Of a stretch of 64,000 bases of DNA, positions 8,346 through 60,760 are shown piece by piece (position 1 is the first letter of the stretch; the number at the start of each line of letters is the position of its first letter). The DNA is from Heliomicrobium modesticaldum Ice1 (lineage in GTDB: Bacteria > Bacillota > Desulfitobacteriia > Heliobacteriales > Heliobacteriaceae): positions 1,125,001-1,189,000 of the forward strand of contig NC_010337.2 of assembly GCF_000019165.1 (NCBI RefSeq), read 5' to 3'. The position numbers were made by a program, and so were the translations under genes. Under the pieces are notes generated by a model. The model saw only the letters and a program-made list of their open reading frames with translations. It was not told where the DNA came from and ran no database searches.

Positions 8346-9233
<888 letters not shown>

Positions 9234-9404
9234 GACCACATCAACGCAACGAATTTCTCGACCATCTACATCGCCTTCGCAGAATACGCAGAAAGCTACT
9301 TTTTTATAAACCCTGACATCTCTTCTCGATGACCGGCAATGTCCTCCGAATGCTACTTACGCGACGAAAACACCCAATTTTAGAAAGGAAAGAGGTGTAG
9401 CTTC

Positions 9405-12304: not shown

Positions 12305-12339
12305 TCCGGTGAACGCCGCAGGTGAAGGGGTGGTAGAAG

Positions 12340-12367
12340 CTCCGGTGGCGGGAAGCCGCCACCGGAG
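12340..12367 (+). other. perfect hairpin between nifK and nifE
   Basis: A 12-bp stem, CTCCGGTGGCGG / CCGCCACCGGAG, encloses a GAAG tetraloop, with no following T tract. In the 236-nt nifK-nifE gap a second, weaker inverted repeat (AAAGAAC / GTTCTTT) lies near 12482-12507. Without a T run the hairpin looks like an mRNA stabiliser or processing site, possibly raising structural nifHDK over nifEN levels (inference). Confidence 0.6.
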
Positions 12368-12540
12368 TCGCTCCCTTCGACGCCCCATCTGCCATGGCAA
12401 TGGGGCCGAGAAAAAAGCGACGATTTTTCAGTGCAACGTGTGCCTCCTCACAGAAGCCTGCACAAAAGAGCCACCTAGAGAAAAGAACCAGCGAAAAACA
12501 GTTCTTTGACTGAGAAAAAGTGGAATAGGGGGTGTCGCCG

Positions 12541-13899
12541 GTGTTCGTCAATCTGTCCAAGTTAAACCTGCGCGAGGAATGTCCTCTCAGCGACAAGGGC
12601 GCGCCCAAGCTCTGCCTGAAAGCGCTGCCCGGGGAAGGCGCCGAGCGCTCCTGCGCCTTCGACGGCGCCCGGGTCGTGCTCATGCCGATCACCGACGCCG
12701 CCCACGTCGTCCACGGTCCCATCGCCTGCGCAGGCAATTCCTGGGATAACCGGGGCGCTCGCTCTTCGGGAGCGCAGCTCTACCGCCGGGGGTTGACAAC
12801 CGACCTGATGGAGATGGACGTCGTCTACGGCGGAGAGAAAAAGCTCATCCAGGCCATCGTCGAAGTCGCCGCGAAGCACCGGCCGAAGGCAGTCTTTGTC
12901 TATGCCACCTGCCTGTCAGCTCTGATCGGTGACGACCTGGAATTTGCCTGCCGGCAAGCACAGGCGCAGGTCCCCGTTCCCGTCATCCCCGTCAACGCCC
13001 CCGGTTTCCTCGGTGATAAGAACATCGGCAACCGGGTCTCCGGCGAAGTCCTCTTCCAGCAAGTCATCGGCACGGCCGAGCCGGAGGGGAGCCACCCCTT
13101 CGCCATCAACTTCATCGGCGAGTACAACATCGCCGGCGACCTCTGGGGCGTCCTGCCCTCCCTTGAAGCCATCGGCGTCAAACTGCAATCCTGCATCAGC
13201 GGCGACGCCCGCTTCGACGACCTGCGCACCGCCCACCGGGCCAAGCTGAACATCCTCGTCTGCTCGAAGAGCCTGACCAACCTGGTCAAACAAATGGAAA
13301 AGAAATACGGCATCCCCTACATTGAAGGCTCCTTCTATGGGATCCATGACACGAGCAAGACCTTGCGAGCCATCGCCGAAGCCTTCGGCGACGCCGACCT
13401 GATCGCCCGGACAGAAGATCACATTCGGCAGAAAGAGGCTGAGACGCGGGCCCTCATCGCGCCCTACAGACAAGGACTCGAAGGCAAGCGGGCTGTCCTC
13501 TTCACCGGCGGCGTCAAGACCTGGTCCATGGTCACCACCTTGAAGGAACTGGGCATCGAGGTCCTCGCCGGCGGCACCCAGAACTCGACCCCGGAAGACT
13601 TCCTGCGCATGAAGGCCCTCATGGATCCGGAAGCCCACATCATCGAAGACACCAGCGCCGCCGGGTTTTTGACCCTGATCAAAGAAAAAGCGCCCGACCT
13701 GATCGTGGCGGGCGGCAAGACGAAATACCTGGCCCACAAGACGCGGACCCCTTTTCTCGACATCAACCACGGACGCAACCTGCCCTACGCCGGCTATAAC
13801 GGCATGATCACCTTCGCCAAGGCCGTCGCCCGCACCGTCTTCAGCCCCGTCTGGGAAAAAATGCAAAAACCCTTTCCGGCAGGAGGTGACGTGCCATGA
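12541..13899 (+). CDS. nifE: FeMo-cofactor scaffold NifE
   Basis: About 452 residues, NifD-related. Readable family parts: CAFDGARVVLMPITDAAHVVHGPIACAG near the N-terminus, SNTR-like GDDLEFAC, and NFIGEYNIAGD. NifE and NifN form the scaffold on which the NifB cofactor precursor matures. The first GTG at 12532 touches the purine-rich AGGGGG; GTG 12541 has better RBS spacing, so I prefer it. The stop overlaps the nifN start (ATGA). Confidence 0.95.
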   Translation: MFVNLSKLNLREECPLSDKGAPKLCLKALPGEGAERSCAFDGARVVLMPITDAAHVVHGPIACAGNSWDNRGARSSGAQLYRRGLTTDLMEMDVVYGGEKKLIQAIVEVAAKHRPKAVFVYATCLSALIGDDLEFACRQAQAQVPVPVIPVNAPGFLGDKNIGNRVSGEVLFQQVIGTAEPEGSHPFAINFIGEYNIAGDLWGVLPSLEAIGVKLQSCISGDARFDDLRTAHRAKLNILVCSKSLTNLVKQMEKKYGIPYIEGSFYGIHDTSKTLRAIAEAFGDADLIARTEDHIRQKEAETRALIAPYRQGLEGKRAVLFTGGVKTWSMVTTLKELGIEVLAGGTQNSTPEDFLRMKALMDPEAHIIEDTSAAGFLTLIKEKAPDLIVAGGKTKYLAHKTRTPFLDINHGRNLPYAGYNGMITFAKAVARTVFSPVWEKMQKPFPAGGDVP

Positions 13900-15278
13900 T
13901 GCAGCCGCGATCCAGTGTCAATGCCGACCTTGCGATGGATAACGTGGTCGCAAAGGCCGCCAACGCCACTGAGGATGTAAAAGCTGGCAGTGCCAGCGCT
14001 GCCCCGGCCGTCACCCCGCGAAGCTACACCGGCAATCCCCAGAAAAACAGCCCCGCCCTCGGCGCTACCCTCGCCTACATGGGCGTCGACGGACTGTTAG
14101 CCCTCTTGCACGGCTCCCAGGGATGCTCCACTTTCATCCGGCTCCAGTTGTCGCGCCACTTTAAAGAACCGGTACCGCTTAACTCGACAGCCCTTTTAGA
14201 GGAAACGGCTATTTTTGGCGGCTGGGAACATCTCAAAAAGGGCATCGCCAAAGCGGCCGACAAGTTTAAGCCGCGCATCATCGGCGTCATGAGCTCCGGC
14301 CTGACGGAAACCTTCGGCGATGACATGGGAAGCGCCTGGTCCACCCTGCGGCAGGAACGGCCCGACTTGAGCGGCCTGCCAGTGGTTCTGGCCAAGACAC
14401 CTGATTATATCGGTTCGTTGCAAGAAGGCTATCAGCGCACCGCCTTGGCCCTCGTAGAAACGCTGGCTAAGGATTCTGCGCCGCAGGAAGCGAAGACAAT
14501 CGCCCTCTTACCTGGCGCCCATCTCACCCCGGCTGACGTGGAAGAACTGAAAGACATGGTGAGCCTCTTTGGACTGACACCGCTTGTTCTGCCGGATATC
14601 TCTACATCCTTGGACGGTCACTCCGAGATCGACCCGGCGCCGGTCGTACAGGGCGGCATCACCTTAGAGGAGATCCGCCGTATCCCCGGCTCTGTGGCCG
14701 CCTTCTCCTTCGGCCCCAGCATGGCCGTCGTCGGCGAGGCGCTCCAGCGGATGCACGGCGTGCCCCATTTGGCCGTCCACTCCTTGACAGGGTTGGACGC
14801 CGTCGACCTCTTCGTCCTCACACTGTGCCAAATCTCGGGACGGCCCATCCCGGAGCGGCTGCTCCGGCAACGGAGCCGCCTGTTGGATACACTGGCCGAC
14901 TACCACGACCAGATCGGCCAGAAAAAAATCGCCCTGGCCCTCGAATCGGACCTCCTGCTGAGCTTAGCCGGCTGCCTCGCCGAATTCGGCGCCGTCATCC
15001 AGACCGCCTTGGCCGCCTCGGCTCCTGAACCGAGCGCGGTCCCTCCCGGCATCCCCGTCGCCGTCGGCGATCTGGAACACCTGGAGGAGATGGCCGCCGG
15101 CAGCCACCTGATCATCGCCAACTCCAATGCCCGCCAGGCGGCTCTGCCGCTGAAAATCCCCCATCTGCGCGCCGGCCTTCCCGTCTTCGACCGGGCTGGC
15201 ATGCCTCAAACGGTCTGGATCGGCTACCGGGGAACCCAGCGATTCCTCATCGACTGCCTGAACGCCATGGCTGTGTAA
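13896..15278 (+). CDS. nifN: FeMo-cofactor scaffold NifN
   Basis: 460 residues. NifK-related, with NPQKNSPALGATLAYMGVDGLLALLHGSQGCSTF and the VVLAKTPDYIGSLQEGY stretch. It pairs with NifE. The first ~45 residues are an Ala/Val-rich low-complexity extension before the conserved core. The ATGA overlap with nifE and the AGGAGGTGA upstream support the early start, so the extension is probably translated. NifN ends 12 nt before nifX. Confidence 0.95.
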   Translation: MMQPRSSVNADLAMDNVVAKAANATEDVKAGSASAAPAVTPRSYTGNPQKNSPALGATLAYMGVDGLLALLHGSQGCSTFIRLQLSRHFKEPVPLNSTALLEETAIFGGWEHLKKGIAKAADKFKPRIIGVMSSGLTETFGDDMGSAWSTLRQERPDLSGLPVVLAKTPDYIGSLQEGYQRTALALVETLAKDSAPQEAKTIALLPGAHLTPADVEELKDMVSLFGLTPLVLPDISTSLDGHSEIDPAPVVQGGITLEEIRRIPGSVAAFSFGPSMAVVGEALQRMHGVPHLAVHSLTGLDAVDLFVLTLCQISGRPIPERLLRQRSRLLDTLADYHDQIGQKKIALALESDLLLSLAGCLAEFGAVIQTALAASAPEPSAVPPGIPVAVGDLEHLEEMAAGSHLIIANSNARQAALPLKIPHLRAGLPVFDRAGMPQTVWIGYRGTQRFLIDCLNAMAV

Positions 15279-15290
15279 GGAGGGCCTCCT

Positions 15291-15680
15291 ATGCTCGTTG
15301 CTTTTGCCACTGGAAGCCAGACCTGCATCGATGCCCACTTCGGGCTCGCTCCCGCCTTCGCCATCTACGATGTCACCGCTGAAGCGATTGTGTCAAAGGG
15401 AATGGTCTACTGCCCGCAAGAGTTCGCCTCGGAGGCGGACAAAGAGGACAAGGTTGAAACCCGCATGCAGATCCTGCACGGCTGTACCGTCGCCTACTGC
15501 ACCAGCATCGGCGGCCCGGCAGCGGCCCGCCTGGTTCAGAGCGGGATCCACCCGCTGAAAGTGCCCGAAGGAACGGTCATCGAAGACGAACTGAAGCGCC
15601 TGCAGACCTTGCTGGCCGGTTCCCCGCCGCCGTGGCTGCGCAAACGGCTTCAACAAGAGAAGAGGCTGAAGGAGGACTAA
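15291..15680 (+). CDS. nifX: NifX, FeMo-cofactor precursor carrier
   Basis: 129 residues of the dinitrogenase iron-molybdenum cofactor-binding family: LVAFATGSQTCIDAHFGLAPAFAIYDV at the N-terminus, and the C-G-P motif region SIGGPAAARLVQSGIHPLK. NifX carries NifB-cofactor or a later precursor between NifB and NifEN (family knowledge). The last ~20 residues are charged and helical. RBS AAGGAGG precedes ATG. Confidence 0.93.
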   Translation: MLVAFATGSQTCIDAHFGLAPAFAIYDVTAEAIVSKGMVYCPQEFASEADKEDKVETRMQILHGCTVAYCTSIGGPAAARLVQSGIHPLKVPEGTVIEDELKRLQTLLAGSPPPWLRKRLQQEKRLKED

Positions 15681-15683
15681 CAG

Positions 15684-15956
15684 ATGGCTACCTTCATCGG
15701 ATTGACCTACGGCGGTCAGGAATGGACCCCCAAATTCGTCGAAGCGATCGACCCCATGAAATGCATGGGCTGCGGCCGCTGCATCAAGGTGTGCGCCCAA
15801 GGCGCCCTCGGTATCACTACCTTCACGGACGAAGACGACATGCAGCGCATGATCGCCATCATCGCTGACAAGAACCGCTGCATCGGCTGCCAGGCCTGCG
15901 GCAGGACCTGCGCCAAGCGCTGCTTCACCTTCGCGCCAAAAGAGATCGAAGGCTGA
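15684..15956 (+). CDS. fdxN: 2[4Fe-4S] ferredoxin of the nif cluster
   Basis: 90 residues with two ferredoxin motifs, Cys27-30-33-37 and Cys66-69-72-76. It lies 3 nt after nifX and before nifB, the usual place of the nif-linked ferredoxin. Likely role: electron supply to NifB or nitrogenase. The symbol is by position; the protein is a bacterial-type ferredoxin with an extra N-terminal strand (IGLTYGGQEWTPKF). Confidence 0.88.
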   Translation: MATFIGLTYGGQEWTPKFVEAIDPMKCMGCGRCIKVCAQGALGITTFTDEDDMQRMIAIIADKNRCIGCQACGRTCAKRCFTFAPKEIEG

Positions 15957-16044
15957 AGCGAGGGGAGTCGCCTCTCATCGGTGGGAAAGGACAGGTTTCC
16001 CATCACCTGACGATAACAGGATGAATCGGAAAGAGGTGTGAAGC

Positions 16045-16878
16045 ATGGGCTGTCTCGGATCTTGCGCTGGAAACCCAAAAGAGTCGACCCTTCGCCACCC
16101 CTGTTTTTCACCTCAGGGTCACGGTAAAGCCGGGCGCATCCACCTGCCGGTGGCGCCGAGCTGCAACATCGGCTGTGGATACTGTGTGCGCAAGTTCGAC
16201 TGCGCCAACGAGTCCCGCCCCGGCGTCACCAGCCGGGTGATCACGCCGGAACAAGCCCTCTGGCGCGTCGAACAGGCGCTGGCCTCCGATATCGGCCCCT
16301 ACCTCAACGTGGTCGGCATCGCCGGCCCCGGAGAACCGCTGGCCAACGAAAACACCTTCAAGACCTTCCGCCTGATTCAGGAGCATTATCCGCACTTGAT
16401 CAGTTGTGTCAGCTCCAACGGTCTGTTGCTCGCCGATCGCCTCGACGATCTGGTGAAGCTCAACGTCTCTCACATCACGGTGACGATGAACACAGTCGAC
16501 CCGGCCATCGGCGCGCGTATCTACCGCCATGTGCGCTATCAGGGACAAAGGCTGACCGGGGAGGCGGGCGCCGCCTTGCTCATCGAGCGGCAACTGGACG
16601 GCATCGAAAGGGCGGCCGCCGCCGGACGGACCGTCAAAGTCAATACGGTCGTCATCCCGGGCCTGAACGATGACAAGGTTGCAACGCTTGCCCGGGAAGT
16701 GAAGCGCCGCGGGGCCAGGCTGCTCAATCTCATGCCCCTGATCAACCAGGGTGATTTCGCCGATTGGGTGCCGCCGACGCCGGCCCTGTTGCAGAAGCTG
16801 CAACAAATAGCGTCCGCCATCCTGCCCCAACTGACCCACTGCCGCCAGTGCCGCGCCGACGCCATCGGATGGATATAA
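16045..16878 (+). CDS. nifB: FeMo-cofactor biosynthesis radical SAM protein NifB
   Basis: 277 residues. The radical SAM motif CxxxCxxC is Cys40, Cys44, Cys47 (SCNIGCGYC); Cys20 and later cysteines near the C-terminus (CRQCRADAIGW) are cluster ligands typical of NifB. The NifX-like C-terminal domain found in many proteobacterial NifB proteins is missing, as in archaea and several Firmicutes. It makes the 8Fe-9S-C NifB-cofactor. RBS AAAGAGGTG is upstream of ATG. Confidence 0.95.
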   Translation: MGCLGSCAGNPKESTLRHPCFSPQGHGKAGRIHLPVAPSCNIGCGYCVRKFDCANESRPGVTSRVITPEQALWRVEQALASDIGPYLNVVGIAGPGEPLANENTFKTFRLIQEHYPHLISCVSSNGLLLADRLDDLVKLNVSHITVTMNTVDPAIGARIYRHVRYQGQRLTGEAGAALLIERQLDGIERAAAAGRTVKVNTVVIPGLNDDKVATLAREVKRRGARLLNLMPLINQGDFADWVPPTPALLQKLQQIASAILPQLTHCRQCRADAIGWI

Positions 16879-16896
16879 GGGTAAGGGGGCGTTGTC

Positions 16897-18039
16897 ATGC
16901 GCCAACGGGTTTGGTTGATGGATACGACGCTGCGCGACGGCGAGCAAACGCCGGGCGTGGCTTTTTGCCCACAGGAAAAAGCACTGCTGGCTCGGCGCCT
17001 CGCCGAAGCGGGCGTCCACGAAATTGAAACGGGCGTGCCCGCCATGGGAGAAGATGAACAGGAGACCATCGCCCGCATCGTCAAGTTGAACCTGCCGACG
17101 CGGGTGACCACCTGGAACCGGGCTGTCATCTCCGATCTGGAAGCGAGCCTCAACTGCGGCGTCCGCAGTGTTGCCATCTGCCTTCCCTCTTCGGATCAGC
17201 AGATCACCCAGAAACTGCGCCAAAGCCGCCAGTGGGTCCTCGACCAGATGGGCGCCTGTGTCCGCCGGGCCAAGGCGGAAGGGCTTTATGTGGTGATCGG
17301 CCTAGAAGACGCCAGCCGGGCCGATCCCCAGTTTTTGATCCAACTGGGCCTGGAAGCGGAGCGCCTCAAAGTGAACCGGCTGCGCATCTCCGACACGCTG
17401 GGCATCCTCGACCCCATCCGCACCTTCAACCTCTTTGACCGCCTGACGTCATCGCTCTCCATTCCGTTGGAGATCCATGCTCACAATGACCTGGGTATGG
17501 CCACGGCCAACACGGTGTCGGCCATCCAGGCAGGCGCCAAAGCGGCCAGCGTCACCGTCTGCGGGCTCGGTGAGCGGGCCGGCAACGCCCCCCTGGAAGA
17601 GGTGGCTCTCGCCCTGCGCCAGTGCTGCGCTGCCGATACGCGCATCAACCTGGCGCTGTTGCCGGCGCTCTGCCGGCTCGTCAGTTGGTCCACACGTCGG
17701 CCCATCCCCTTCTCCAAGCCTGTTGTGGGCCGCGACGCCTTCACGCACGCCTCATCCATTCATGTAGATGGACTGAATAAAGACCGTTCCAATTATGAAG
17801 CCTATCCGCCCGAGTATGTGGGTCGCCGCCACCGCATCGCCTTTGGCAAATACAGCGGGCGAAAACTTTTGGCTGAACTGCTCAAGGCCCAGGGACATGA
17901 CCTGGACCAGGAGGAGATGACCCAATTGCTCTTGAACGTGCGCCAACTCAGCCAAGTCTTGAAGCGCCCCCTGCGCCAGCACGACATCGTCGACCTCATC
18001 TTTGGTGAGACGTCTGCACAAAGGGACATGCGTGCCTGA
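16897..18039 (+). CDS. nifV: homocitrate synthase NifV
   Basis: 380 residues of the DRE-TIM metallolyase family: MDTTLRDGEQTPGVAF at the start (divalent metal and substrate site) and LEIHAHNDLGMATANT with the metal-binding His pair. It condenses acetyl-CoA with 2-oxoglutarate to homocitrate, the organic ligand of FeMo-cofactor. As the last nif gene it starts 18 nt after nifB. Confidence 0.95.
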   Translation: MRQRVWLMDTTLRDGEQTPGVAFCPQEKALLARRLAEAGVHEIETGVPAMGEDEQETIARIVKLNLPTRVTTWNRAVISDLEASLNCGVRSVAICLPSSDQQITQKLRQSRQWVLDQMGACVRRAKAEGLYVVIGLEDASRADPQFLIQLGLEAERLKVNRLRISDTLGILDPIRTFNLFDRLTSSLSIPLEIHAHNDLGMATANTVSAIQAGAKAASVTVCGLGERAGNAPLEEVALALRQCCAADTRINLALLPALCRLVSWSTRRPIPFSKPVVGRDAFTHASSIHVDGLNKDRSNYEAYPPEYVGRRHRIAFGKYSGRKLLAELLKAQGHDLDQEEMTQLLLNVRQLSQVLKRPLRQHDIVDLIFGETSAQRDMRA

Positions 18040-33543: not shown

Positions 33544-33836
33544 TGCGCATGCCTCCTATATCGTTGCTGTCTTTTCCTTGTGGACGCTTTTACGTCCCCT
33601 GCTTGGTCGCCTTTTTCTGTAAATATTTTTCTGTGAGGCTACCTTTTCTTCAGGAGAGCTGAAAAGTCCTTTGCAAATTTTTGTAAAAAAAGCGGGAGAT
33701 ACAATTTTGCAATTTTTTTAATATTTAGATTTTTTATACAAGGGCAATCTACCGAAAAGGATTTGTTCAGAAAAAAGCGAATGAGAAAGCAATAACATAG
33801 ACTAACGCCGTCGGCTCGAGGGAGGATGAACATCCT

Positions 33837-48107: not shown

Positions 48108-48514
48108 GCGTTTGGCGACAAGGAAGAAAGGTGCCGGGACGATTCGGCAGGGGCATTCCGTGATGTGGTCGATATTAATCATTTAGTATTCGCATAAATT
48201 TTTTAACTTTTTTTGCGAATGACTTTTTTGCTTTACTTACATTCAGGCTTTTTCCCAACACCTTGTTCACACCATTGCTTCGATAGGCAATCCCACCCTA
48301 TCCGGTCTCGGGGGCGAGAATAGAAAGTCATCCATGGAAGAAGACCAAGCGGTAGCGGCCAAAGCGCACGTTGGCGCACCGTCCGTCACCGTGCGTCACT
48401 GTGCGCCACTGTGATGCATAGTGCCGCACAACTTCAAATAGAATAGGGACGCACTATAAAAACATGGTAAAATATAGAACAAACTGCGCGTTCACGATGC
48501 TATGGGGAGGGGAA

Positions 48515-49330
48515 ATGATGGACTTTCAAGAGATTGATCGGTTGAAGCAAATAGTGGACAAGTACAGGCCATTATGCCGAGAGTTGATGGAGGCTCTGTC
48601 AAGGAAGTTCCGCGAGGAGTGGACCTATCATACCAATGCGCTCGAAGGAAACACGATGACATTGCAAGAAACGGTGTTCTTTCTCCGCGAAGGATTGACG
48701 GTGGAAGGGCGCACGTTGAAAGAGCATATGGAAATGCTCAATCACGTGGAGGCTATTGACTTTATGCAAGAAGCGTTGTCCTCTCGTGACCTATCGGAAC
48801 GAATGGTGAAAGACTTTCATGCGATACTGTTCAGTGATATGAAATACGCTAAGGGAGAGATACCTGTTCCCCCCGGATTGTATAAAACACGCGACAATTA
48901 TGTTGTCACTCTGTCTGGGGAAATTCACCACTACTGCCCGCACTATCTTGTTCCGGAAAAAATGGAGGAGTTGTTTCGCTGGTACGAAGACGCCAAGAAG
49001 TCGCTACATCCCCTAGAGATATCTGCACTGATGCATCAGAAGTTGGTGGCGATCCATCCTTTCCCTGATGGAAATGGTCGAACCGCTAGGCTCGTCATGA
49101 ACTTTCTTCTTTTGCAGAAAGGATATCCGCCGGCGATCATTCCCAAGGAGCGACGACGTGAGTATTATGTGGCCCTTGAAGAAGGTGATCAGGGGAACAC
49201 TGAACGGTTTATCCGCCTCGTTGCCGAAGAAGTGAAGCGCAGCCTGTTGGTGATGCACACGGAAATCGCCAAAGTTGTTCAGCAACAACAGCCAATAACC
49301 GGTGATAAGAAAAAAACGGACAGGGTATGA
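48515..49330 (+). CDS. Fic family protein with N-terminal inhibitory motif
   Basis: 271 residues from ATG (GGAGGGG upstream). The Fic motif HPFPDGNGRTAR is at 181-192, with His181 as the catalytic base, and predicts AMP or other nucleotidyl transfer to a protein hydroxyl. The inhibitory (S/T)xxxE(G/N) motif TNALEG is at 40-45, so this is a self-restrained class II Fic. No separate antitoxin gene is adjacent, consistent with the built-in motif. The gene is less GC-rich than its neighbours and stands between terminator and intergenic DNA, so it may be acquired. The target is unknown. Confidence 0.9.
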   Translation: MMDFQEIDRLKQIVDKYRPLCRELMEALSRKFREEWTYHTNALEGNTMTLQETVFFLREGLTVEGRTLKEHMEMLNHVEAIDFMQEALSSRDLSERMVKDFHAILFSDMKYAKGEIPVPPGLYKTRDNYVVTLSGEIHHYCPHYLVPEKMEELFRWYEDAKKSLHPLEISALMHQKLVAIHPFPDGNGRTARLVMNFLLLQKGYPPAIIPKERRREYYVALEEGDQGNTERFIRLVAEEVKRSLLVMHTEIAKVVQQQQPITGDKKKTDRV

Positions 49331-49975: not shown

Positions 49976-50067
49976 GTGAAGAAGCTGCGCAGCATGCATC
50001 CTTGCAGGTTCTTGTGGCTGATCAGTTTTTCAATCTGCGAGGTGAAGAAGCTACTCAGCATGCATCG
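49976..50067. repeat. direct repeat at the 3' end of the rhodanese-fusion gene
   Basis: GTGAAGAAGCTGCGCAGCATGCATC (49976-50000) recurs as the near-copy at 50042-50066. The second copy covers the last codons of the minus-strand gene. Confidence 0.6.
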
Positions 50068-51893
50068 TCGCCTTTGCCGTTGCCATTACCGCTGCCGCCG
50101 CAGTCGCAGCCGCCTCGCGCCGGCATCTGCTGACCGCTCTTAAGCCCTGGCGCGGCGACCTTCTCTTTGGTGTAGTCGCAACCACAGCCGTCTAGCGCCG
50201 GCATCTGCTGACTGCTCGCGGTTTCTCCCACCTGATAGCGTGCGATCTCATAGGACATATAGCCCCCGGACAGGTTCCTCGCCTTGAATCCCCGTTGCTT
50301 CAAAATCCGCTCGGCCAGGTACCCGCGGAAGCCGACTCTGCAGTACAGCCAGTACTCCTTGCTGGGATCCAGTTCGCCGAGCCGGTCCCGCAACGCGTCG
50401 ACGGGGATATGGATCGCGCCGGGGATGTGGCCGTTTTCGTATTCAAGTTCGCTGCGCACATCGAGCAGCACGGCCTTTTCCCGGTCCATCCCATCAATAT
50501 CGCTGCTGGTGAAGAGGTCTGCCCGACCGGCAAGCACGTTTTCGGCGAGAAAGCCGGCCATGTTGACAGGGTCTTTGGCCGATGAATAGGGCGGCGCATA
50601 GGCGAGTTCCAGCTCCTTCAGGTCATCGACGGTTCCGCCCATACGGATGACCGTGGCGATGACGTCGATGCGCTTGTCGACGCCGTCATAGCCAAAAGCC
50701 TGAGCGCCGAGCACCTTGCCCGTTTCAGCGAAGAGCACCTTCAGCGCGATCGGTGTGGCGCCGGGGTAATAGGAGGCGTGGGAGTTGGGATGGACGTGAA
50801 CGACTCGGTAGGCCATGCCGAGGCGGCGGAGGTTGCGCTCGTTGTTGCCCGTCATCGCCCCGGTGAGGCCGAAGATCTTGATGATGGATGTCCCTTGGGA
50901 TCCTCGGAAGCGGCTGTCGATGCCGCAGATGTTGTCGGCGGCGACGCGACCTTGTTTGTTGGCGGGGCCGGCCAAAGGGATGGTCGTCTCGCCGCCGTTG
51001 ACGAAGTCGACGACTTGGATGGCGTCGCCGACGGCGTAGACGCTGTCCAGGTTGGTCTGCATGCGATCATTGACGATGATGTGGCCGCGGGGGCCGAACT
51101 GGAGGCCCGAGCCCTTCAGAAAGTCTACATCAGGTTTGACGCCGATGGCCAAGATGACCATGCCGGCTTTCAGGCGGGTGCCGCTGAGCAGGGTGACCTC
51201 GATCTCGTCGCCGCCGGGAATCTCCGCAAACTCCCGCACCCCGTCGCCAAGGATCATCCGCACGCCGTGATCGGACAGTTCCTTCTCGGCCAGGGTGACC
51301 ATGTCATCGTCAAAGGGCGGCAGGATATGAGGCGCCGCTTCCACCAGGGTGACAGGGATGCCGCGTTCGATCAGGTTCTCTGCCATCTCGACGCCGATGA
51401 AACCACCGCCGATGACGACGGCCGCTGTTCTCTCTTTTTTTCGGGCTATGTTGTCGACGACGGCCTTGATCCGGTCGGCGTCGGGGATGTTGCGAACGGT
51501 AAAGATCTTGTCGCTCCCGACGCCGGCGATGGGCGGGACAAAGGGTTTCGCTCCCGGCGAGAGGACGAGCACGTCGTAGGATTCTTCGTAAACACCTCGG
51601 TCGGCGCTTTTGACGGTCACGCTCTTCTTTGCGCTGTCGATAGACACCACCTCGCTGTGCAGGCGGGCGTCGATGTTGAACCGGTCGAGCATCATCTGCG
51701 GCGTCTGCAGGATCAGGTTGGAACGCTCGACGATGGTTTCGCCGATGTAGTACGGCAGGCCGCAGTTGGCGAAGGAAATGTAGCCGTCTCGTTCGAAGAT
51801 AATGATTTCTGCCTGCTCGTCGAGCCTGCGCAAGCGGGCTGCCGCGGATGCCCCGCCTGCGACGCCGCCGACGATGACGACTTTTTTGCTCAC
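50055..51893 (-). CDS. CoA-disulfide reductase-like flavoprotein fused to rhodanese domain
   Basis: 612 residues from GTG, AAGGAGCGG upstream. FAD site GGVAGGASAAARLRR, redox Cys44 in SFANCGLPYY (the single-cysteine CoADR/NADH-oxidase type), NAD-binding VIGGGFIGVEMAENL, then a C-terminal rhodanese domain with VLLDVRSELEYENGHIPGA and active Cys in YCRVGFRG. Likely substrates are CoA-polysulfide or CoA-disulfide. The last ~50 residues hold two copies of a QQMPA..GC(G/D)C unit, giving CxC pairs and a Gly/Asn-rich end. I do not know this tail; it could bind metal or persulfide sulfur. Confidence 0.92.
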   Translation of the reverse strand: MSKKVVIVGGVAGGASAAARLRRLDEQAEIIIFERDGYISFANCGLPYYIGETIVERSNLILQTPQMMLDRFNIDARLHSEVVSIDSAKKSVTVKSADRGVYEESYDVLVLSPGAKPFVPPIAGVGSDKIFTVRNIPDADRIKAVVDNIARKKERTAAVVIGGGFIGVEMAENLIERGIPVTLVEAAPHILPPFDDDMVTLAEKELSDHGVRMILGDGVREFAEIPGGDEIEVTLLSGTRLKAGMVILAIGVKPDVDFLKGSGLQFGPRGHIIVNDRMQTNLDSVYAVGDAIQVVDFVNGGETTIPLAGPANKQGRVAADNICGIDSRFRGSQGTSIIKIFGLTGAMTGNNERNLRRLGMAYRVVHVHPNSHASYYPGATPIALKVLFAETGKVLGAQAFGYDGVDKRIDVIATVIRMGGTVDDLKELELAYAPPYSSAKDPVNMAGFLAENVLAGRADLFTSSDIDGMDREKAVLLDVRSELEYENGHIPGAIHIPVDALRDRLGELDPSKEYWLYCRVGFRGYLAERILKQRGFKARNLSGGYMSYEIARYQVGETASSQQMPALDGCGCDYTKEKVAAPGLKSGQQMPARGGCDCGGSGNGNGKGDDAC

Positions 51894-52160: not shown

Positions 52161-52285
52161 TTTCAAAAAAGGAATAACCAAAATGGCGTCGAATACGTTA
52201 AACTATATATAGCCGAGTTCTGGTCGCAAGGGAGACTGTCGGCCAGTGCTCAGGGAAAATGTGGAAAAAAGGAGGTGTACGCCCA

Positions 52286-52381
52286 ATGGAAATGTACAGC
52301 CCCACTTTTAATGTCGCCCACATCCTGGCCTTTTTCTTCCTGTTCCTCCACATTCCTTTCTACTTCGTCCTGAAAGACTAG
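52286..52381 (+). CDS. pshX: 31-residue single-helix membrane peptide, probable PshX
   Basis: 31 codons from ATG with an excellent RBS (AAAAGGAGGTG). One hydrophobic helix spans about residues 10-28 (VAHILAFFFLFLHIPFYFVL), with His12 and His22 in the helix, and the peptide ends KD. PshX, the small subunit seen in the heliobacterial reaction centre structure, is a 31-residue one-helix peptide that holds antenna bacteriochlorophyll g. Length, topology and histidines fit, so I propose identity; this is from memory and unaligned. A strong terminator follows at 52453. It is independent of the larger frames here, which do not encode it. Confidence 0.75.
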   Translation: MEMYSPTFNVAHILAFFFLFLHIPFYFVLKD

Positions 52382-52452
52382 TATCCCTATGCACTAATCC
52401 TCTTTGGCCGTTCGGCAAAGCGATTCTTTCGTAGTGACGACATAACTACAGT

Positions 52453-52486
52453 AAATCAGGGGGGTGACTCCCTGATTTGTTTTTTC
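52453..52486 (+). terminator. terminator after pshX
   Basis: AAATCAGGG / CCCTGATTT with T6 after a G. It makes pshX a monocistronic unit. The remaining 52490-52766 is AT-rich and shows no gene. Confidence 0.88.
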
Positions 52487-52766: not shown

Positions 52767-53924
52767 ATGAGAATTAAAAACATTATCGTACTGGGTATGT
52801 ACCCCTATCCTTGGCACGAGAAGACGATCAGCGACACCATGCGGTCTATGACGAGGGCATTTAAGGGAAAGAAAAGGATCTTTATCAATCCAAGTGTGGG
52901 ATTTCAACGGGCCGTACGAGAAAACTACTCCTTTGCCATGGATTGGGCTTGTCGCGACGATAGTGGCGTCATCGTTTGCACTCCGCCGCTTGAAACAATC
53001 CCCTCCTCCTTCGGTCTGGGAAGCATGAAAAATTCTTGGGTGAATAAACGGCTAGCCTCCCTCATGGCAAGTCTTTTGGGGGACGATTGGCGGGAAGACA
53101 GTCTTTTGTACCTCTCATCGGGTGGGATCGGGCAATCCTATCAGACGATGATGGCATTAAAACCAAAGAGGATGGCTTTTGATATACTTGACGACAACCT
53201 TGGTTTTCCCGGGATCCGCCCTGATGAAAAAGCAGTGCTGGAAGACCGTTTTAGAGAACTCGTTAATAAAGCGAATGTTGTCACTGCCGTCTCACCGTAT
53301 CTGGTAGAGAAGTTTTCTGCGAAGTTTCAGAATGACATTCATTTGCTCCCAAACGGTTTGGATGTGGAGAGATTCTCCTATCGTCCAGAGTACGCAAGGC
53401 CTATCGCTGAATTAAATGGGCTGGAAAGGCCTGTGATCGGTTTTATCGGCGCCCTGACGAGTTGGATAGACTTTGAACTTATCTTGAAGATGGCAGAACA
53501 CATAAAAACGGGCTCCATTGCGCTGGTAGGGCCAATTTACAGCACAGCTGTGTCGCAGTTGAAAGGACACCCGAGGATTCGATTTATTGATTCGATCCCT
53601 TATGAGCGGGTACCGCACTTTTTATACCAATTTGATATTCTCTTATTGCCGAGGAATTATGAACCCCATTCGCTCGCATCGGATCCGTTGAAGCTGTATG
53701 AGTATATGGCCACCGGCAAGCCGGTCCTTTCAACAGCGTTGCCAAGCGCGATGCGGTTTCAGGATGTCATCTATGTAGGAAAAACCCATCAAGATATATT
53801 GGATTTGCTTGGAAAAATTCCTGCTCATTGGAGCAGCGAGCAGTCCCTGGCGGAAATTCAACGGGTGGCATCGATGGATTGGCATCAGAGGGCCGAAAGA
53901 TTGCTCCGCTGGATTGAAGATTAG
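52767..53924 (+). CDS. glycosyltransferase, family 4-like (TuaH-like)
   Basis: 385 residues from ATG with GGGAGCGG. The C-terminal Rossmann half carries the donor-binding region SDPLKLYEYMATGKPVLST, and the middle has VIGFIGALTSWIDFELI, typical of GT-B glycosyltransferases of the GT4/TuaH type. It probably builds cell-surface polysaccharide; donor and acceptor unknown. The gene has visibly lower GC and different codon choice from its neighbours, is alone, and may be transferred. Confidence 0.85.
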   Translation: MRIKNIIVLGMYPYPWHEKTISDTMRSMTRAFKGKKRIFINPSVGFQRAVRENYSFAMDWACRDDSGVIVCTPPLETIPSSFGLGSMKNSWVNKRLASLMASLLGDDWREDSLLYLSSGGIGQSYQTMMALKPKRMAFDILDDNLGFPGIRPDEKAVLEDRFRELVNKANVVTAVSPYLVEKFSAKFQNDIHLLPNGLDVERFSYRPEYARPIAELNGLERPVIGFIGALTSWIDFELILKMAEHIKTGSIALVGPIYSTAVSQLKGHPRIRFIDSIPYERVPHFLYQFDILLLPRNYEPHSLASDPLKLYEYMATGKPVLSTALPSAMRFQDVIYVGKTHQDILDLLGKIPAHWSSEQSLAEIQRVASMDWHQRAERLLRWIED

Positions 53925-53988: not shown

Positions 53989-54072
53989 CTTGGTCTTGCC
54001 AAAGCATCAAAAAAGTGTCCATAATGAAGACAAGGACTCGTTCGGGTGCGGAACTGTGATTGGAAAGGTGCG

Positions 54073-55866
54073 ATGACCGTGTCAGGTTTTCGGGGGACGG
54101 CCTTTCGCTTCTGGTTCGCCTTGACAACCCTGAGCCTCGCCGGAATTTTGGTAATGGCCGGTCATTTCATGCGGACGGAACGCGCACAGTTGGAAGAGGC
54201 GCTGCGCAATGAGGCGCTGGCTGGGGCAACCCTTCTGGCAAGCGCTGTCGGATCGGAATTGCAGAAAGGGGATGTCGAGCGGATCAATTCCCTGGCCTGG
54301 GCGCTTCTGAACCAGCCGAATATCCAGTATGTCCGTGTGCTTGACGCCAACGGCAGGGTCGTGACGCAACGGGAGAAAACCTTTTACGTGACCGATGTGC
54401 TGATTGAACAAGTTCCGGTGCTGGAACTTGATAAGACCCTTGGGACAGTAGAGATCGCAGTCCGGATGACAGACCTCCGCAAACAGCAGAAAAAGCGTTT
54501 TGACTATTCCGTCGCCGTGGCCTGTCTGGCTTCGCTTGCCGCTGTGGCCTTCTCCGCCTGGATCAGCCGCCGGCTCACCCTGCCGCTGGTTCGTCTCAGA
54601 GAAGCGGCGCGCCGTATGGCTGATGGCGATCGGTCAGTCCGTGTCCCGGAAGCGGGCTCGGAAGAGACGGTTGCGCTGGCCATCGCCTTTAACCAGATGG
54701 CCGCGGCCGTGGCCGATCACCAGGCGTTGCTGCAGGAAGAGATCCGCAAGGCCACAGCGAGCTTGGCGGAAAAGGTGGAGACGCTGGAGTCGCTGGACCG
54801 TATCTTTCGGAGCGCCTTGGCGCAGAATGCGCGACGGGACGAGGTGATCGGGACGATTATCGACCACATCCGGGTGCGTGTGCCGGCGGAAGCGATCTCT
54901 ATCGCCGTGTGGGAAGAGGAGAAGAAGATAGCTGAGTGTTACATCTGGGAGTCTCAGGGAGCGGGGATCCTGTCTCTTTCGATTCCCCTCGATCAGACGC
55001 GCTTGTTGGCAGTGGCGGCGGCGGGACAGCCGCGGATCTGCGCAGATCTGCGCCGGGAGGCGATGGGCTTGCAAGAGGAGGAGCTCCTCGCCTTGGGGTA
55101 CCATTCGACGGTGTATGTTCCTCTGATGGCCGGGGAAAGAGCCTTGGGCGCCATTATTGTCAGCAGCCGGGAACCCGGTTTTTACACCGATGAGATGGTG
55201 GGACGGCTGACCGAAATGGCCCAGGCCGTTTCCATATCCCTCAATAACGCCAATGCCTACACATCGCTGAACAACGCCTTTTGGCAGATGATTAAGACGC
55301 TCTCCCGGGCGATCGACATGCGCGACGCCTATACGGGCGGCCATTCCGAACAGGTGATGCTCCTGTCGCGGGCGATTGCCCGTCTGGCGGGCCTTCCCGA
55401 CGGAGAGATCGAAACGATCGGCATCGCCGGACTGCTCCATGATGTGGGCAAGATAGGTATTCGGGAGAGCATCCTGCAGAAGCCGGGGCCTTTGAGCGCC
55501 GATGAGGCTGCCGAGATGAAAAGCCACCCGGCCATGGGTGCCGAACTGCTGCGGCCCATCAGGATGTTCCGAAAGGTGGCTGATATCGTTCATCACCACC
55601 ATGAACGCTTTGATGGCAAAGGCTATCCCCTCGGACTTCGCGGTGAGGAGATTCCGATAGCCAGCCGGGTGATCGCTATCGCCGACGCGATTGACGCCAT
55701 GGCCAGCGACCGCCCTTACCGCAAGGGGTTGCCGCCCAGTGTCATTCAGGAAGAATTGCGCAGGCACGCCGGCACCCAGTTCGATCCCCATCTGGCGACG
55801 ATTGTCGTCGAGCATTTTGACGAATTGATGGCACTGGTACTTCGGACCGCCGATGCGACGGTGTAG
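54073..55866 (+). CDS. HD-GYP domain phosphodiesterase with HAMP and GAF
   Basis: 597 residues (GTG 54079 also possible). One membrane helix near the N-terminus (FWFALTTLSLAGILVMAGHF) and a second at about 150-170 enclose a short outer segment; then HAMP, a GAF domain (about 250-400) and a C-terminal HD-GYP: LLHDVGKIG with the HD pair and FDGKGYPLGLRGEEIP with the GYP motif. It predicts c-di-GMP hydrolysis, opposing the GGDEF protein at 26532-29531 in principle. Convergent with the histidine kinase gene. Confidence 0.93.
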   Translation: MTVSGFRGTAFRFWFALTTLSLAGILVMAGHFMRTERAQLEEALRNEALAGATLLASAVGSELQKGDVERINSLAWALLNQPNIQYVRVLDANGRVVTQREKTFYVTDVLIEQVPVLELDKTLGTVEIAVRMTDLRKQQKKRFDYSVAVACLASLAAVAFSAWISRRLTLPLVRLREAARRMADGDRSVRVPEAGSEETVALAIAFNQMAAAVADHQALLQEEIRKATASLAEKVETLESLDRIFRSALAQNARRDEVIGTIIDHIRVRVPAEAISIAVWEEEKKIAECYIWESQGAGILSLSIPLDQTRLLAVAAAGQPRICADLRREAMGLQEEELLALGYHSTVYVPLMAGERALGAIIVSSREPGFYTDEMVGRLTEMAQAVSISLNNANAYTSLNNAFWQMIKTLSRAIDMRDAYTGGHSEQVMLLSRAIARLAGLPDGEIETIGIAGLLHDVGKIGIRESILQKPGPLSADEAAEMKSHPAMGAELLRPIRMFRKVADIVHHHHERFDGKGYPLGLRGEEIPIASRVIAIADAIDAMASDRPYRKGLPPSVIQEELRRHAGTQFDPHLATIVVEHFDELMALVLRTADATV

Positions 55867-55985: not shown

Positions 55986-57974
55986 TCACCGGCTCTTCGT
56001 TGCAGTCGGCGGCAAAGCAGCGCCTGTTTCCCGGCGGTGCCGTCCATCCGGTTCCGGCGCTTGCTCCGAGCTTCCCGCCGATTCGGGGAGACGGTTCTCT
56101 ACAGATACGGCGGGGGGCAAGTGAGGTGGCGGAAGGGCGACCATGCAAGCAGTGAAAGTGAAGGTGCTGCCTTTTCCCGGTTCGCTGTCGACCCAGATCT
56201 GTCCGCCCATCAGTTCGACGAGGCGTTTGCAGATGGCGAGGCCGAGGCCGGTTCCTCCGAATCGCCGTGTCAATGAGGCGTCGACCTGGGTAAAGCTGTC
56301 GAAGATTCGGTCTTGCCACTCCGGTGGGATGCCAAGGCCTGTATCGATGACGGAAAAACGCAGGTGGACCGGTTGGCCGGGAAAATGGGGCGGGTTAGGA
56401 TCTGCTGTTGCGCCGGATGGCGATACCACCGGGTCAGCGACTTCGATGTGGAGGGAGACGGCGCCTGTTTCGGTGAACTTGATGGCGTTACCGAGGAGGT
56501 TGAAGAGCACCTGACGGAGGGCGCCGACGTCGCCCAACAGAAGGCGAGGGATATCATCGGGCAGTCGCACCGTCAGTTCAAGGCCCTTTTCTTGGGCGCG
56601 GGTGGAGAAGAGGGCGATTGTATCGTTGACCAGGTTGTCCAGGTAGAATTCGACGGGCTGCAACACCTGTTTGCCTGACTCGATCTTGGACAAGTCGAGG
56701 ATGTCATTGATCAGCGCCAGGAGATTGTTGCCGGCATCGCGGAAGATGTGGACGAATTTTTTTTGCTCTTCATTGAGCGGTGTTTCCCAGAGCAGGTCGG
56801 CTATGCCGATGATGGCGTTCATCGGGGTGCGGATCTCATGGCTCATATTAGCCAGAAAGGCGCTCTTGGCGCGGTTGGCCACATCGGCTTCTTCTTTAGC
56901 CAGCTGTAGGGCTGTCTGCATCTGCCGGCGCTCTTGCAGTTCCTTTTCCAAGGCCAGGGTTTTGCGCCGTATCTCTGCTTCCATTTCACTCGCATGTATG
57001 ATGATTTTGCCGGTCAGGAGGCGCAGTAGAAGGGTGATCGCCAGGACGCCCAAGACGATCAATCCGAGGATAACGCCAGCGAGCAGGCTGGTCTGAACCC
57101 GGATGGGAGCGTAAAACTTGTCGGAGCTCATCATGACCAGGAGCACCCAGCAAGTGTCCGGGATCGGACCGTAAGCGATGATGTGGTGGGGAGCCAGAAC
57201 GAAATGAGGGTTGTAAAGGCCGCTTTGTCCCTCGGACGCTTTCAGGAGTGTAGCCCCGACGGGGTCTTTTGTGTCAATAGGGAAGGTGGAAGGGGTGGAC
57301 GCCTCGTGAAGGTTGAACAGCCACTCGCCTTGCTCTCCCTGGACGCGTGCGAGCAAGACTCCTCCCGTATCGCCGAGCCCTGTCTTGTCTTCCAGGATAT
57401 GGCGCAACCCGTCTGTTCGGAAGATGACCGTATCGTAGCCGAGCACGTCGCCGGTCGCGGTGGTGATGGGGGCGCTGACGAGGAGGACGGGCGTGCCCTC
57501 GATCAACGCGGGGCCGTGGATGGCCTCTCTGCCGCTGTTGTCTTCGGCGACACAGGGGCATTCCTGAGGCAATGCGGCGCCGACCTGGACCAGCGCTTGT
57601 TTGTCTCGGTCAAAGCGGGTGATGCCGATGACGCCGGCCTCCGGGTTCAGGGCTTCTTTCAGCCGTTCAGCCGTATACAGGGCCAGTTCCTGGCGACTGA
57701 TCTCGCCGTGGTAGTAGGCGGAGAGGCTTTTTTTGATTTGACTGCGGCTAGTCACCTGAAGGGTGACATCGCGGCACTTCGACAGAAACTGTTCCAGCAC
57801 CATGGTCCGGGAGCGGAGCGCCGCGATCAGTTGCTGCTCGGCATCACTTTGCAAGTGGTTATAGTAGGGGATGATGCTGACCAGGGCGATCAAGATCCCG
57901 ATAGCAAGGATCCCCAGGGTCGAATAGCCGATGATGGTTTTTTTCCACTGTTCCGGGTTGTCCAGTCTGACCAT
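55986..57974 (-). CDS. sensor histidine kinase with extracytoplasmic Cache-like domain
   Basis: 662 residues, RBS GGAGGA. Membrane helices at about 14-36 and 300-322 flank a large outer sensor (about 40-295) with Cache-like features. HisKA has the phospho-His in MSHEIRTPMNAIIG; HATPase shows LFNLLGNAIKFT, DTGLGIPPEW and GGTGLGLAICKRLVELMGG. No receiver domain follows; a Pro/Ala-rich tail of ~55 residues ends the protein where hybrid kinases usually continue. A cognate regulator is not adjacent, so the partner is unknown. Confidence 0.92.
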   Translation of the reverse strand: MVRLDNPEQWKKTIIGYSTLGILAIGILIALVSIIPYYNHLQSDAEQQLIAALRSRTMVLEQFLSKCRDVTLQVTSRSQIKKSLSAYYHGEISRQELALYTAERLKEALNPEAGVIGITRFDRDKQALVQVGAALPQECPCVAEDNSGREAIHGPALIEGTPVLLVSAPITTATGDVLGYDTVIFRTDGLRHILEDKTGLGDTGGVLLARVQGEQGEWLFNLHEASTPSTFPIDTKDPVGATLLKASEGQSGLYNPHFVLAPHHIIAYGPIPDTCWVLLVMMSSDKFYAPIRVQTSLLAGVILGLIVLGVLAITLLLRLLTGKIIIHASEMEAEIRRKTLALEKELQERRQMQTALQLAKEEADVANRAKSAFLANMSHEIRTPMNAIIGIADLLWETPLNEEQKKFVHIFRDAGNNLLALINDILDLSKIESGKQVLQPVEFYLDNLVNDTIALFSTRAQEKGLELTVRLPDDIPRLLLGDVGALRQVLFNLLGNAIKFTETGAVSLHIEVADPVVSPSGATADPNPPHFPGQPVHLRFSVIDTGLGIPPEWQDRIFDSFTQVDASLTRRFGGTGLGLAICKRLVELMGGQIWVDSEPGKGSTFTFTACMVALPPPHLPPAVSVENRLPESAGSSEQAPEPDGRHRRETGAALPPTATKSR

Positions 57975-58876: not shown

Positions 58877-58939
58877 TGTATGTAAACGCAATGCCAGCTG
58901 GATCGCTTCGGCCGATCGGCGGAGATGTGGGAGGATATC

Positions 58940-60760
58940 ATGGCCTATCTGGCGCTTTACCGAGAGTGGCGACCCCAGAGCTTTCAGGAACTGGTCGGCC
59001 AGGAGCATGTGAGCCGGACCTTGCAGAATGCCATCGCCTACCAGCGGATCGCCCATGCCTACCTCTTTTGCGGCCCTCGGGGGACAGGAAAGACGACGAC
59101 GGCCAAGATCCTGGCCAAGGCGCTCAATTGCAGCGGCCATGGCCCGGTGAGACCCTGCAACGACTGCCTTAACTGCCGCGCCATCAACACGGGCGCCTCC
59201 CACGACGTGCTGGAAATCGACGCGGCGTCCAACCGGGGCGTCGATGAGATCCGCGAGTTGCGCGAACAGGTCAAGTACGCGCCCCAAGAGGGGAACTACA
59301 AGGTCTACATCATCGACGAAGTCCACATGCTGACGACGGAGGCCTTCAACGCCCTCTTGAAGACGCTGGAGGAGCCGCCGGCCAATGTGATCTTTGTGCT
59401 GGCTACGACAGAGGTGCACAAGATCCCGGCCACCATCCTCTCCCGCTGTCAGCGCTTTGACTTTCGCCGCCTCGGTGTCAACGAGATCGTCGACCGTCTG
59501 GAGCGGATCTGCCGCCATCACGAGATCGCGGCCTCCCGCGAGACGCTGTCCTTTATCGCCCGCAAGGCCGAAGGGGGTATGCGGGACGCCCTGGGGATTC
59601 TCGATCAGTGCGTCTCTTACGCCGGGAACGAGATCGACAGCGGTGATGTGACGGCCATCTTGGGCGCTGTCGCCGATGAGATACTCTATGACATGACCCA
59701 GGGTTTGGCGGAAGATCGGCTCTCCGATGTGCTGATGCAGCTGAATGATCTGATCAACCGGGGCAAAGAGGTGCGGCCGCTGACGCGGGATCTGCTCGGG
59801 CACTACCGGGACCGGTTGATCCTGCGGACGGTGCCGGGCGCCGCCGATCTGGTGGACATGCCCGACGACATCGCCGCAAAGGTCAAAGAAACAGGCCACG
59901 TCTACAGCGTATCCGACCTGCAGGCCTGCATCGCCCTGTTGAGCCAGGCCGAAAATGACATGAAATGGACAACCCATCCGCGCATCCTGCTGGAGGTGGC
60001 CTTTGTCCGCATCGCCTGCCGAGAGTGGGGGAAAGGCGCCGGCAACGCGCCGGCGTCACCGACTTCGGGCGGGGCCGGCGGCGCTGCTGACATGGAGATG
60101 CGCGCCCTCCGTCGGCGGGTGGAAAGCCTCGAGGCCAAGGTGCGGGAGATGCAGCAGGCAGTTGAGAATCAAGGCGCGGCTTCCGGGGAAAAGCGCCCTA
60201 GCCTAGATTCGGAGGCGCTTCGGCGCCCACAGCCTGCGATGCCCTCAGCAACCATCTCCAAGCTGGATGAGGAGACGAAAGCGGCAGCCCGGCTTGCCGA
60301 AGGGCCGATCCATATTGACCAGGTCAACGCCTGCTGGCCCAATGTGCTCGCTGCCGCGCTGGAGCGCATTTCCCCGTTGAAACGCTCCATCCTGCGTGGA
60401 CAGACGCGTTTGGCTGGCGTTGAACTGAACCGGGTCGTCCTGGTCCATAACAACACCCTCTATGACCAGCCCAACGATCCGAAATTGAGCGATGTGGTGA
60501 ACGCTCTCAAGGAGGAGTTTTCCAAGGCCCTGGGCAGGCCGGTGTCGATTCAACTCTGCCATGAAAGCCAGTGGAAGCCCGGAGGGGAACGGCAGCAGCG
60601 GCAAAGAGGGGGGGCTCCTCCGGCGCCGGCGAAGGCGGCGGGAACAGGCGGCGCGACCCCACCCTGGGCTGACCCGGCCTATATCCGTGACAAGGTTTTT
60701 CAAGATCCCAACCTGCCGGTGGAATTTGACGACGACGACAGGTTGGATGGGCTGGAATAG
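58940..60760 (+). CDS. dnaX: DNA polymerase III subunit gamma/tau
   Basis: 606 residues from ATG with GGGAGGA (an upstream ATG at 58925 lacks an RBS). AAA+ clamp-loader ATPase: P-loop GPRGTGKT at 45-52, zinc-ligand cysteines 64, 73, 76 and 79, and DEVHMLTTEAFNALLKTLEEPP. The C-terminal region is Ala/Gln/Gly-rich, with a tau-like domain. I recognised no programmed frameshift site. It loads the sliding clamp. Confidence 0.97.
   Translation: MAYLALYREWRPQSFQELVGQEHVSRTLQNAIAYQRIAHAYLFCGPRGTGKTTTAKILAKALNCSGHGPVRPCNDCLNCRAINTGASHDVLEIDAASNRGVDEIRELREQVKYAPQEGNYKVYIIDEVHMLTTEAFNALLKTLEEPPANVIFVLATTEVHKIPATILSRCQRFDFRRLGVNEIVDRLERICRHHEIAASRETLSFIARKAEGGMRDALGILDQCVSYAGNEIDSGDVTAILGAVADEILYDMTQGLAEDRLSDVLMQLNDLINRGKEVRPLTRDLLGHYRDRLILRTVPGAADLVDMPDDIAAKVKETGHVYSVSDLQACIALLSQAENDMKWTTHPRILLEVAFVRIACREWGKGAGNAPASPTSGGAGGAADMEMRALRRRVESLEAKVREMQQAVENQGAASGEKRPSLDSEALRRPQPAMPSATISKLDEETKAAARLAEGPIHIDQVNACWPNVLAAALERISPLKRSILRGQTRLAGVELNRVVLVHNNTLYDQPNDPKLSDVVNALKEEFSKALGRPVSIQLCHESQWKPGGERQQRQRGGAPPAPAKAAGTGGATPPWADPAYIRDKVFQDPNLPVEFDDDDRLDGLE

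What the first reader, a model, noticed from the sequence alone, without database searches (positions are those of the whole stretch)
52286..52381. Unlisted 31-codon gene, probable pshX of the heliobacterial reaction centre
The peptide has one membrane helix with two histidines, a near-perfect RBS and a following terminator, and fits the known length of PshX. It is easily missed by gene finders and places the window in a phototroph although no other photosynthesis gene is present. It also shows pshX lies away from a photosynthesis cluster.
Basis: partly seen in the sequence, partly recalled or inferred. Interest (0 to 1): 0.8.

Follow-up and report, generated by a model that had tools for sequence, protein, structure and literature searches.

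The report
pshX, heliobacterial reaction-centre antenna gene
The 31-codon gene is real and is the already known pshX, which makes the small antenna subunit of the heliobacterial photosynthetic reaction centre; what seems unreported is that a sporulation-entry-type (SigH) promoter and a conserved RNA hairpin precede it in every phototrophic heliobacterium examined.

Summary
Window 52286-52381 (+) encodes MEMYSPTFNVAHILAFFFLFLHIPFYFVLKD. Residues 4-28 are 25/25 identical to the PshX chain of the solved heliobacterial reaction centre, PDB 5v8k. The genome is one 3,075,407-bp contig, almost certainly Heliomicrobium modesticaldum. The gene is not new: PshX was found in the crystal structure, and its position outside the photosynthesis gene cluster was published in 2020 (PMC7143216). 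Single copies occur in 8 of 9 held family genomes, the same 8 that hold pshA. Among 83 class genomes nothing else scores convincingly. His12 and His22 are invariant.

Beyond the finding: upstream lies a perfect SigH-type promoter (52168-52194), perfect in 7 of 8 heliobacteria and one mismatch in the eighth, always 87-92 nt before the start codon. The motif is rare (38 hits in the genome against 3 for its reversed control) and is not in front of pshA. The leader carries a covarying hairpin found nowhere else in these genomes. I infer that pshX is a one-gene transcript under SigH, controlled separately from pshA. This is untested at the bench.

The parts
52286..52381 (+). pshX coding sequence, 31 codons plus TAG; PshX reaction-centre subunit
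   Evidence: Translation; 25/25 identity to PDB 5v8k PshX chain, E 1.9e-11; 8 orthologues aligned
52270..52278 (+). Shine-Dalgarno sequence AAGGAGGTG
   Evidence: Sequence read; GGAGGTG kept in nearly all of the 8 heliobacteria
52168..52194 (+). SigH-type promoter AAAGGAATA-N11-GTCGAAT (AGGA, 17 nt, GAAT)
   Evidence: Pattern match, 2 in window against 0.05 expected; perfect in 7 of 8 heliobacteria, 1 mismatch in the 8th; 38 against 3 control hits genome-wide
52195..52285 (+). 5' leader of pshX with a conserved hairpin (main helix CUGGUCG/CGGCCAG, about 52219-52246)
   Evidence: Length 87-92 nt in all 8; 5 of 11 pairs with two-sided changes, 0/500 shuffles as high; covariance model finds it only before pshX
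52450..52481 (+). Intrinsic terminator of the pshX transcript
   Evidence: 14-pair stem followed by a T-run; similar hairpins after pshX in the relatives

Best explanation
This is pshX. It encodes the 31-residue, single-helix PshX subunit, two copies of which sit at the edge of the homodimeric PshA reaction centre; [quoted passage not shown] The gene is a one-gene transcript: an RNA polymerase carrying SigH starts at a promoter with its -35 and -10 elements at 52168-52194; a roughly 85-nt leader with a hairpin is made; PshX is translated from a strong ribosome-binding site; and transcription ends at 52450-52481. Gene identity is shown. The promoter, leader and terminator are conserved or predicted sequence features. 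Use of SigH and any effect of the hairpin are inferred. If right, PshX supply is set by the transition-phase factor SigH, separately from the pshA operon. The confidence given is for the gene identity; for SigH control I give about 0.75.
For: Identity to 5v8k PshX, 25/25. One copy in each phototrophic family genome; presence matches pshA in 9 of 9 genomes, and the one genome without either also has no bchL above cut-off. Both histidines invariant in 8 sequences. Function: PMC12436468, PMC10968294. SigH: motif perfect in 7 of 8 at a fixed distance from the ATG while its spacer has diverged between genera; 38 hits against 3 for the reversed pattern, with sites before genes whose products look like DnaG, MinC, MraZ, Maf and HU (named by reading the translations); minC is a SigH gene in C. 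difficile (PMC7438776); sigH is present above the family cut-off; the motif equals the SigH motif mapped by TSS sequencing in Sporomusa, AGGA-17/18-GAAT (PMC12456013); no sigma-A-type match before pshX on the + strand.
Against: No transcript start or SigH dependence has been measured. The leaders of genus g4 (G006, G007) and G005 differ in the lower part of the helix, single-sequence folding z-scores are modest (-3.1 to +0.5), and only about four to five lineages contribute to the covariation. The PDB chain covers residues 4-28 only.
Confidence: 0.97

Rival explanations
1. The gene is pshX, but the SigH-like motif is incidental and pshX is transcribed by housekeeping sigma A in step with the photosynthesis cluster.
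For: An AT-rich CTATATATAG block downstream of GAAT is kept in two of the genera and could serve as a sigma-A -10 element; dual promoters occur in relatives (PMC7438776).
Against: The AT block is not kept in the other two genera, whereas AGGA-N17-GAAT is. The promoter scan found no sigma-A-type site before pshX on its strand. The perfect motif is expected 0.05 times per window.
Confidence: 0.2
2. The ORF is another small single-helix membrane peptide, or a chance ORF, not PshX.
For: Short hydrophobic ORFs are common; a second in-frame start exists; no Pfam or NCBIfam family matches.
Against: 25/25 identity to the solved PshX chain, orthologues only in pshA-bearing genomes, codon-position pattern of selection.
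Confidence: 0.01

Closest known systems
PshX of the Heliomicrobium modesticaldum reaction centre (PDB 5v8k)
   Same: Identical over all 25 residues in the PDB chain; single membrane helix; 31 aa as published
   Different: Nothing seen; the first 3 and last 3 residues are not in the chain sequence held
PshX of Heliorestis convoluta (FTV88_2551; PMC7143216)
   Same: 31 aa, outside the photosynthesis cluster; 74% identity published and 74% found here for G007, whose 3,218,981 bp equals the published Hrs. convoluta genome
   Different: 8 of 31 residues differ; leader hairpin sequence differs
SigH-dependent promoters of Bacillota (B. subtilis, C. difficile, Sporomusa; PMC12456013, PMC7438776)
   Same: AGGA and GAAT elements 17 nt apart; regulon with division and replication genes
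   Different: A gene for a photosynthetic reaction-centre subunit is not a described SigH target in the papers I could search

Membership tests
PshX reaction-centre subunit | Sequence identity to the PshX chain of the solved reaction centre | tested here: met
   25/25, E 1.9e-11
PshX reaction-centre subunit | 31 residues with a single membrane helix | tested here: met
   31 aa; hydropathy maximum 2.1; length published in PMC7143216
PshX reaction-centre subunit | Occurs with pshA in the same genome | tested here: met
   8 of 8 pshA genomes have pshX, and the genome without pshA has none
PshX reaction-centre subunit | Candidate bacteriochlorophyll ligands kept (His12, His22) | tested here: met
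   Invariant in 8 sequences; that these are the actual ligands was not checked in the structure
PshX reaction-centre subunit | Present in purified reaction centres, binds two BChl g, low-energy antenna | not testable with these tools
   Reported for H. modesticaldum in PMC12436468
SigH-dependent promoter | RNAGGAWWW-N11-RNNGAAT, i.e. AGGA-17/18-GAAT | tested here: met
   Perfect at 52168-52194; 7 of 8 heliobacteria perfect, the 8th with 1 mismatch
SigH-dependent promoter | sigH encoded in the genome | tested here: met
   TIGR02859 384 bits, cut-off 294.8
SigH-dependent promoter | Mapped transcript start and loss of expression without SigH | not testable with these tools
   No expression data held

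The most novel reading that the evidence does not exclude
[quoted passage not shown] PshX per reaction centre, and so the low-energy antenna, could then vary with growth phase.
Probability: 0.6. Interest if true: 0.5.

Novelty: already known. Interest (0 to 1): 0.27.

Why it matters
The added promoter and leader evidence, if confirmed, would suggest why pshX stands apart from the photosynthesis cluster in heliobacteria: it may be kept under a different control from pshA. It would also give a simple test of whether reaction-centre composition changes with growth phase.

Tried and rejected
Second pshX copy: the only weak extra family hit at first (G006 C35:63061, E 0.365) is not a stand-alone ORF with a start codon and was dropped as chance. 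Distant PshX relatives: a profile search of 83 class genomes gave only the 8 known genes at E 4e-20 or better, then a drop to 0.005 and worse. Pfam and NCBIfam have no model for this peptide. SigH control of the whole photosynthesis cluster: the only perfect site in the cluster region precedes an HU-like gene and an S4-domain-like gene about 16 kb before pshA, so it does not support that idea. A shared promoter motif for pshX and pshA: none seen in the aligned pshA upstream regions of 7 genomes; the G005 pshA start was not located by my script. The primary PshX papers (Gisriel 2017; Orf 2022) are not held.

Full report
Observation. The ORF at 52286-52381 (+) is present and translates to MEMYSPTFNVAHILAFFFLFLHIPFYFVLKD. 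The sequence AAGGAGGTG precedes the ATG by about 7 nt and a terminator-like hairpin with a T-run follows at 52450-52481. A longer in-frame ORF from 52259 exists, but its extra codons are not conserved, and stop codons interrupt that frame in several relatives.

Identity. phmmer against all PDB chains returns one hit, the PshX chain of 5v8k, 25/25 identical, E 1.9e-11. The genome is one contig of 3,075,407 bp, of which the window is 1,125,001-1,189,000. A second heliobacterium, G004, has the identical peptide, so the peptide alone does not fix the species.

Family-wide evidence. Of nine family genomes, eight have one pshX each (68-100% identity) and the same eight have pshA. The ninth (G008, 87% complete) has neither, nor a bchL above cut-off. 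It is either a non-phototrophic relative or an incomplete genome. M1, E2, Y4, N9, A11, H12, L14, A15, H22, P24, F27, V28 and D31 are invariant. Changes fall mostly in third codon positions. A profile search over 83 class genomes finds nothing else.

Location. pshX starts 118.6 kb before pshA here, and 74-149 kb before it on the same strand in six other genomes where both could be placed on one contig. The nearest conserved landmark is dnaX: a dnaX-like gene lies within about 10 kb of pshX in all eight, at 58925-60757 in the window. Direct neighbours here are a CoA-disulfide-reductase-like protein with a rhodanese domain on the opposite strand upstream (50055-51893), and downstream a glycosyltransferase (52767-53921), an HD-domain GAF/HAMP protein (54046-55863) and a histidine kinase (55986-57974). 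That pshX lies outside the photosynthesis cluster is already published for both H. modesticaldum and Heliorestis convoluta (PMC7143216). G007 has exactly the published length of the Hrs. convoluta genome, and its 74% identity equals the published figure.

Function. Published work, not tested here: two PshX per PshA dimer, each a single helix binding two BChl g, stabilising the complex and acting as a low-energy antenna (PMC12436468; PMC10968294). The two invariant histidines are plausible ligands; I did not check this in the coordinates.

Promoter. Aligning the upstream regions showed a block kept in all genera: AAAGGAATA-N11-GTCGAAT at 52168-52194. It fits RNAGGAWWW-N11-RNNGAAT, the SigH consensus as I know it, and the AGGA-17/18-GAAT motif found by transcript-start mapping in Sporomusa (PMC12456013). 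Seven of eight genomes match perfectly and G005 has one mismatch; the GAAT-to-ATG distance is 87-92 nt in all. The N11 spacer differs between genera (ACCAAAATGGC, CTTGAAGACAC, ACCAAATCTAC, TAACCATTGAT), so the boxes are kept while the spacer is not. In the window the pattern occurs twice against 0.05 expected; in the whole genome 38 times against 3 for the reversed pattern. The genes after these sites look like a SigH regulon: translations resembling DnaG, MinC, MraZ, Maf, DprA and an HU protein (my reading of the sequences, not a family search). sigH itself is present, and papers on heliobacterial genomes list it. A paper search for heliobacteria with SigH gave no relevant report; subscription papers were not searchable.

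Contrast with pshA. No perfect site precedes pshA. The only perfect one in the photosynthesis cluster region precedes the HU-like gene about 16 kb upstream of pshA, and a looser scan of the cluster in five genomes found no conserved site before a bch or psh gene that I recognised. pshX and pshA therefore probably answer to different sigma factors.

Leader RNA. The region between GAAT and ATG folds into a hairpin. On the alignment of eight leaders, 87% of cells pair and 5 of 11 pairs have two-sided changes; no shuffle of 500 reached this count or the covariation score, and sliding the partners lowers every measure. A covariance model finds the leader once per phototrophic genome, always before pshX. 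Cautions: eight sequences from four genera, an alignment made without hand editing, modest single-sequence z-scores, and the model was built from these same sequences. The Shine-Dalgarno site lies outside the main hairpin, so protection of the 5' end or mRNA stability is a more likely role than a ribosome-blocking switch; this is inference.

Verdict. Correct observation, correct interpretation, known gene. The promoter and leader are additional, conserved, and as far as the library shows unreported.

Noticed in passing
52168-52194 (+); G000 C1, 38 sites: SigH-type promoter before pshX, part of a genome-wide set of 38 consensus sites (reversed control 3). A candidate SigH regulon of heliobacteria.
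   Followed up: partly
52195-52285 (+): Conserved, covarying hairpin in the pshX leader, found only before pshX in eight heliobacteria.
   Followed up: partly
G000 C1:1279961-1279987 (L074, L086:11962): SigH-type site before an HU-like gene at the edge of the photosynthesis cluster; a matching site is seen upstream of pshA at a similar place in the other seven heliobacteria (one mismatch in G005).
   Followed up: partly
51700-51868 (+): Rfam V_AS7 (Vibrio antisense RNA) match, 96 bits against a gathering score of 90, lying antisense inside the CoA-disulfide-reductase-like gene 50055-51893 (-). Probably reflects protein-coding conservation, not an RNA.
   Followed up: no
33756-33782 (+): Second perfect SigH-type site in the window, 54 nt before a sigma-54 activator with HPr and PAS domains that precedes dhaK.
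   Followed up: no
8379-18036 (+): Nitrogenase cluster with nifH, D, K, E, N and V.
   Followed up: partly
48464-49327 (+): Fic/DOC-domain protein about 3 kb before pshX; its partner genes were not examined.
   Followed up: no
G008 (family genome, 87% complete): Family member with no pshA, pshX or bchL above cut-off: possibly a non-phototrophic relative that would bear on gain or loss of phototrophy.
   Followed up: partly
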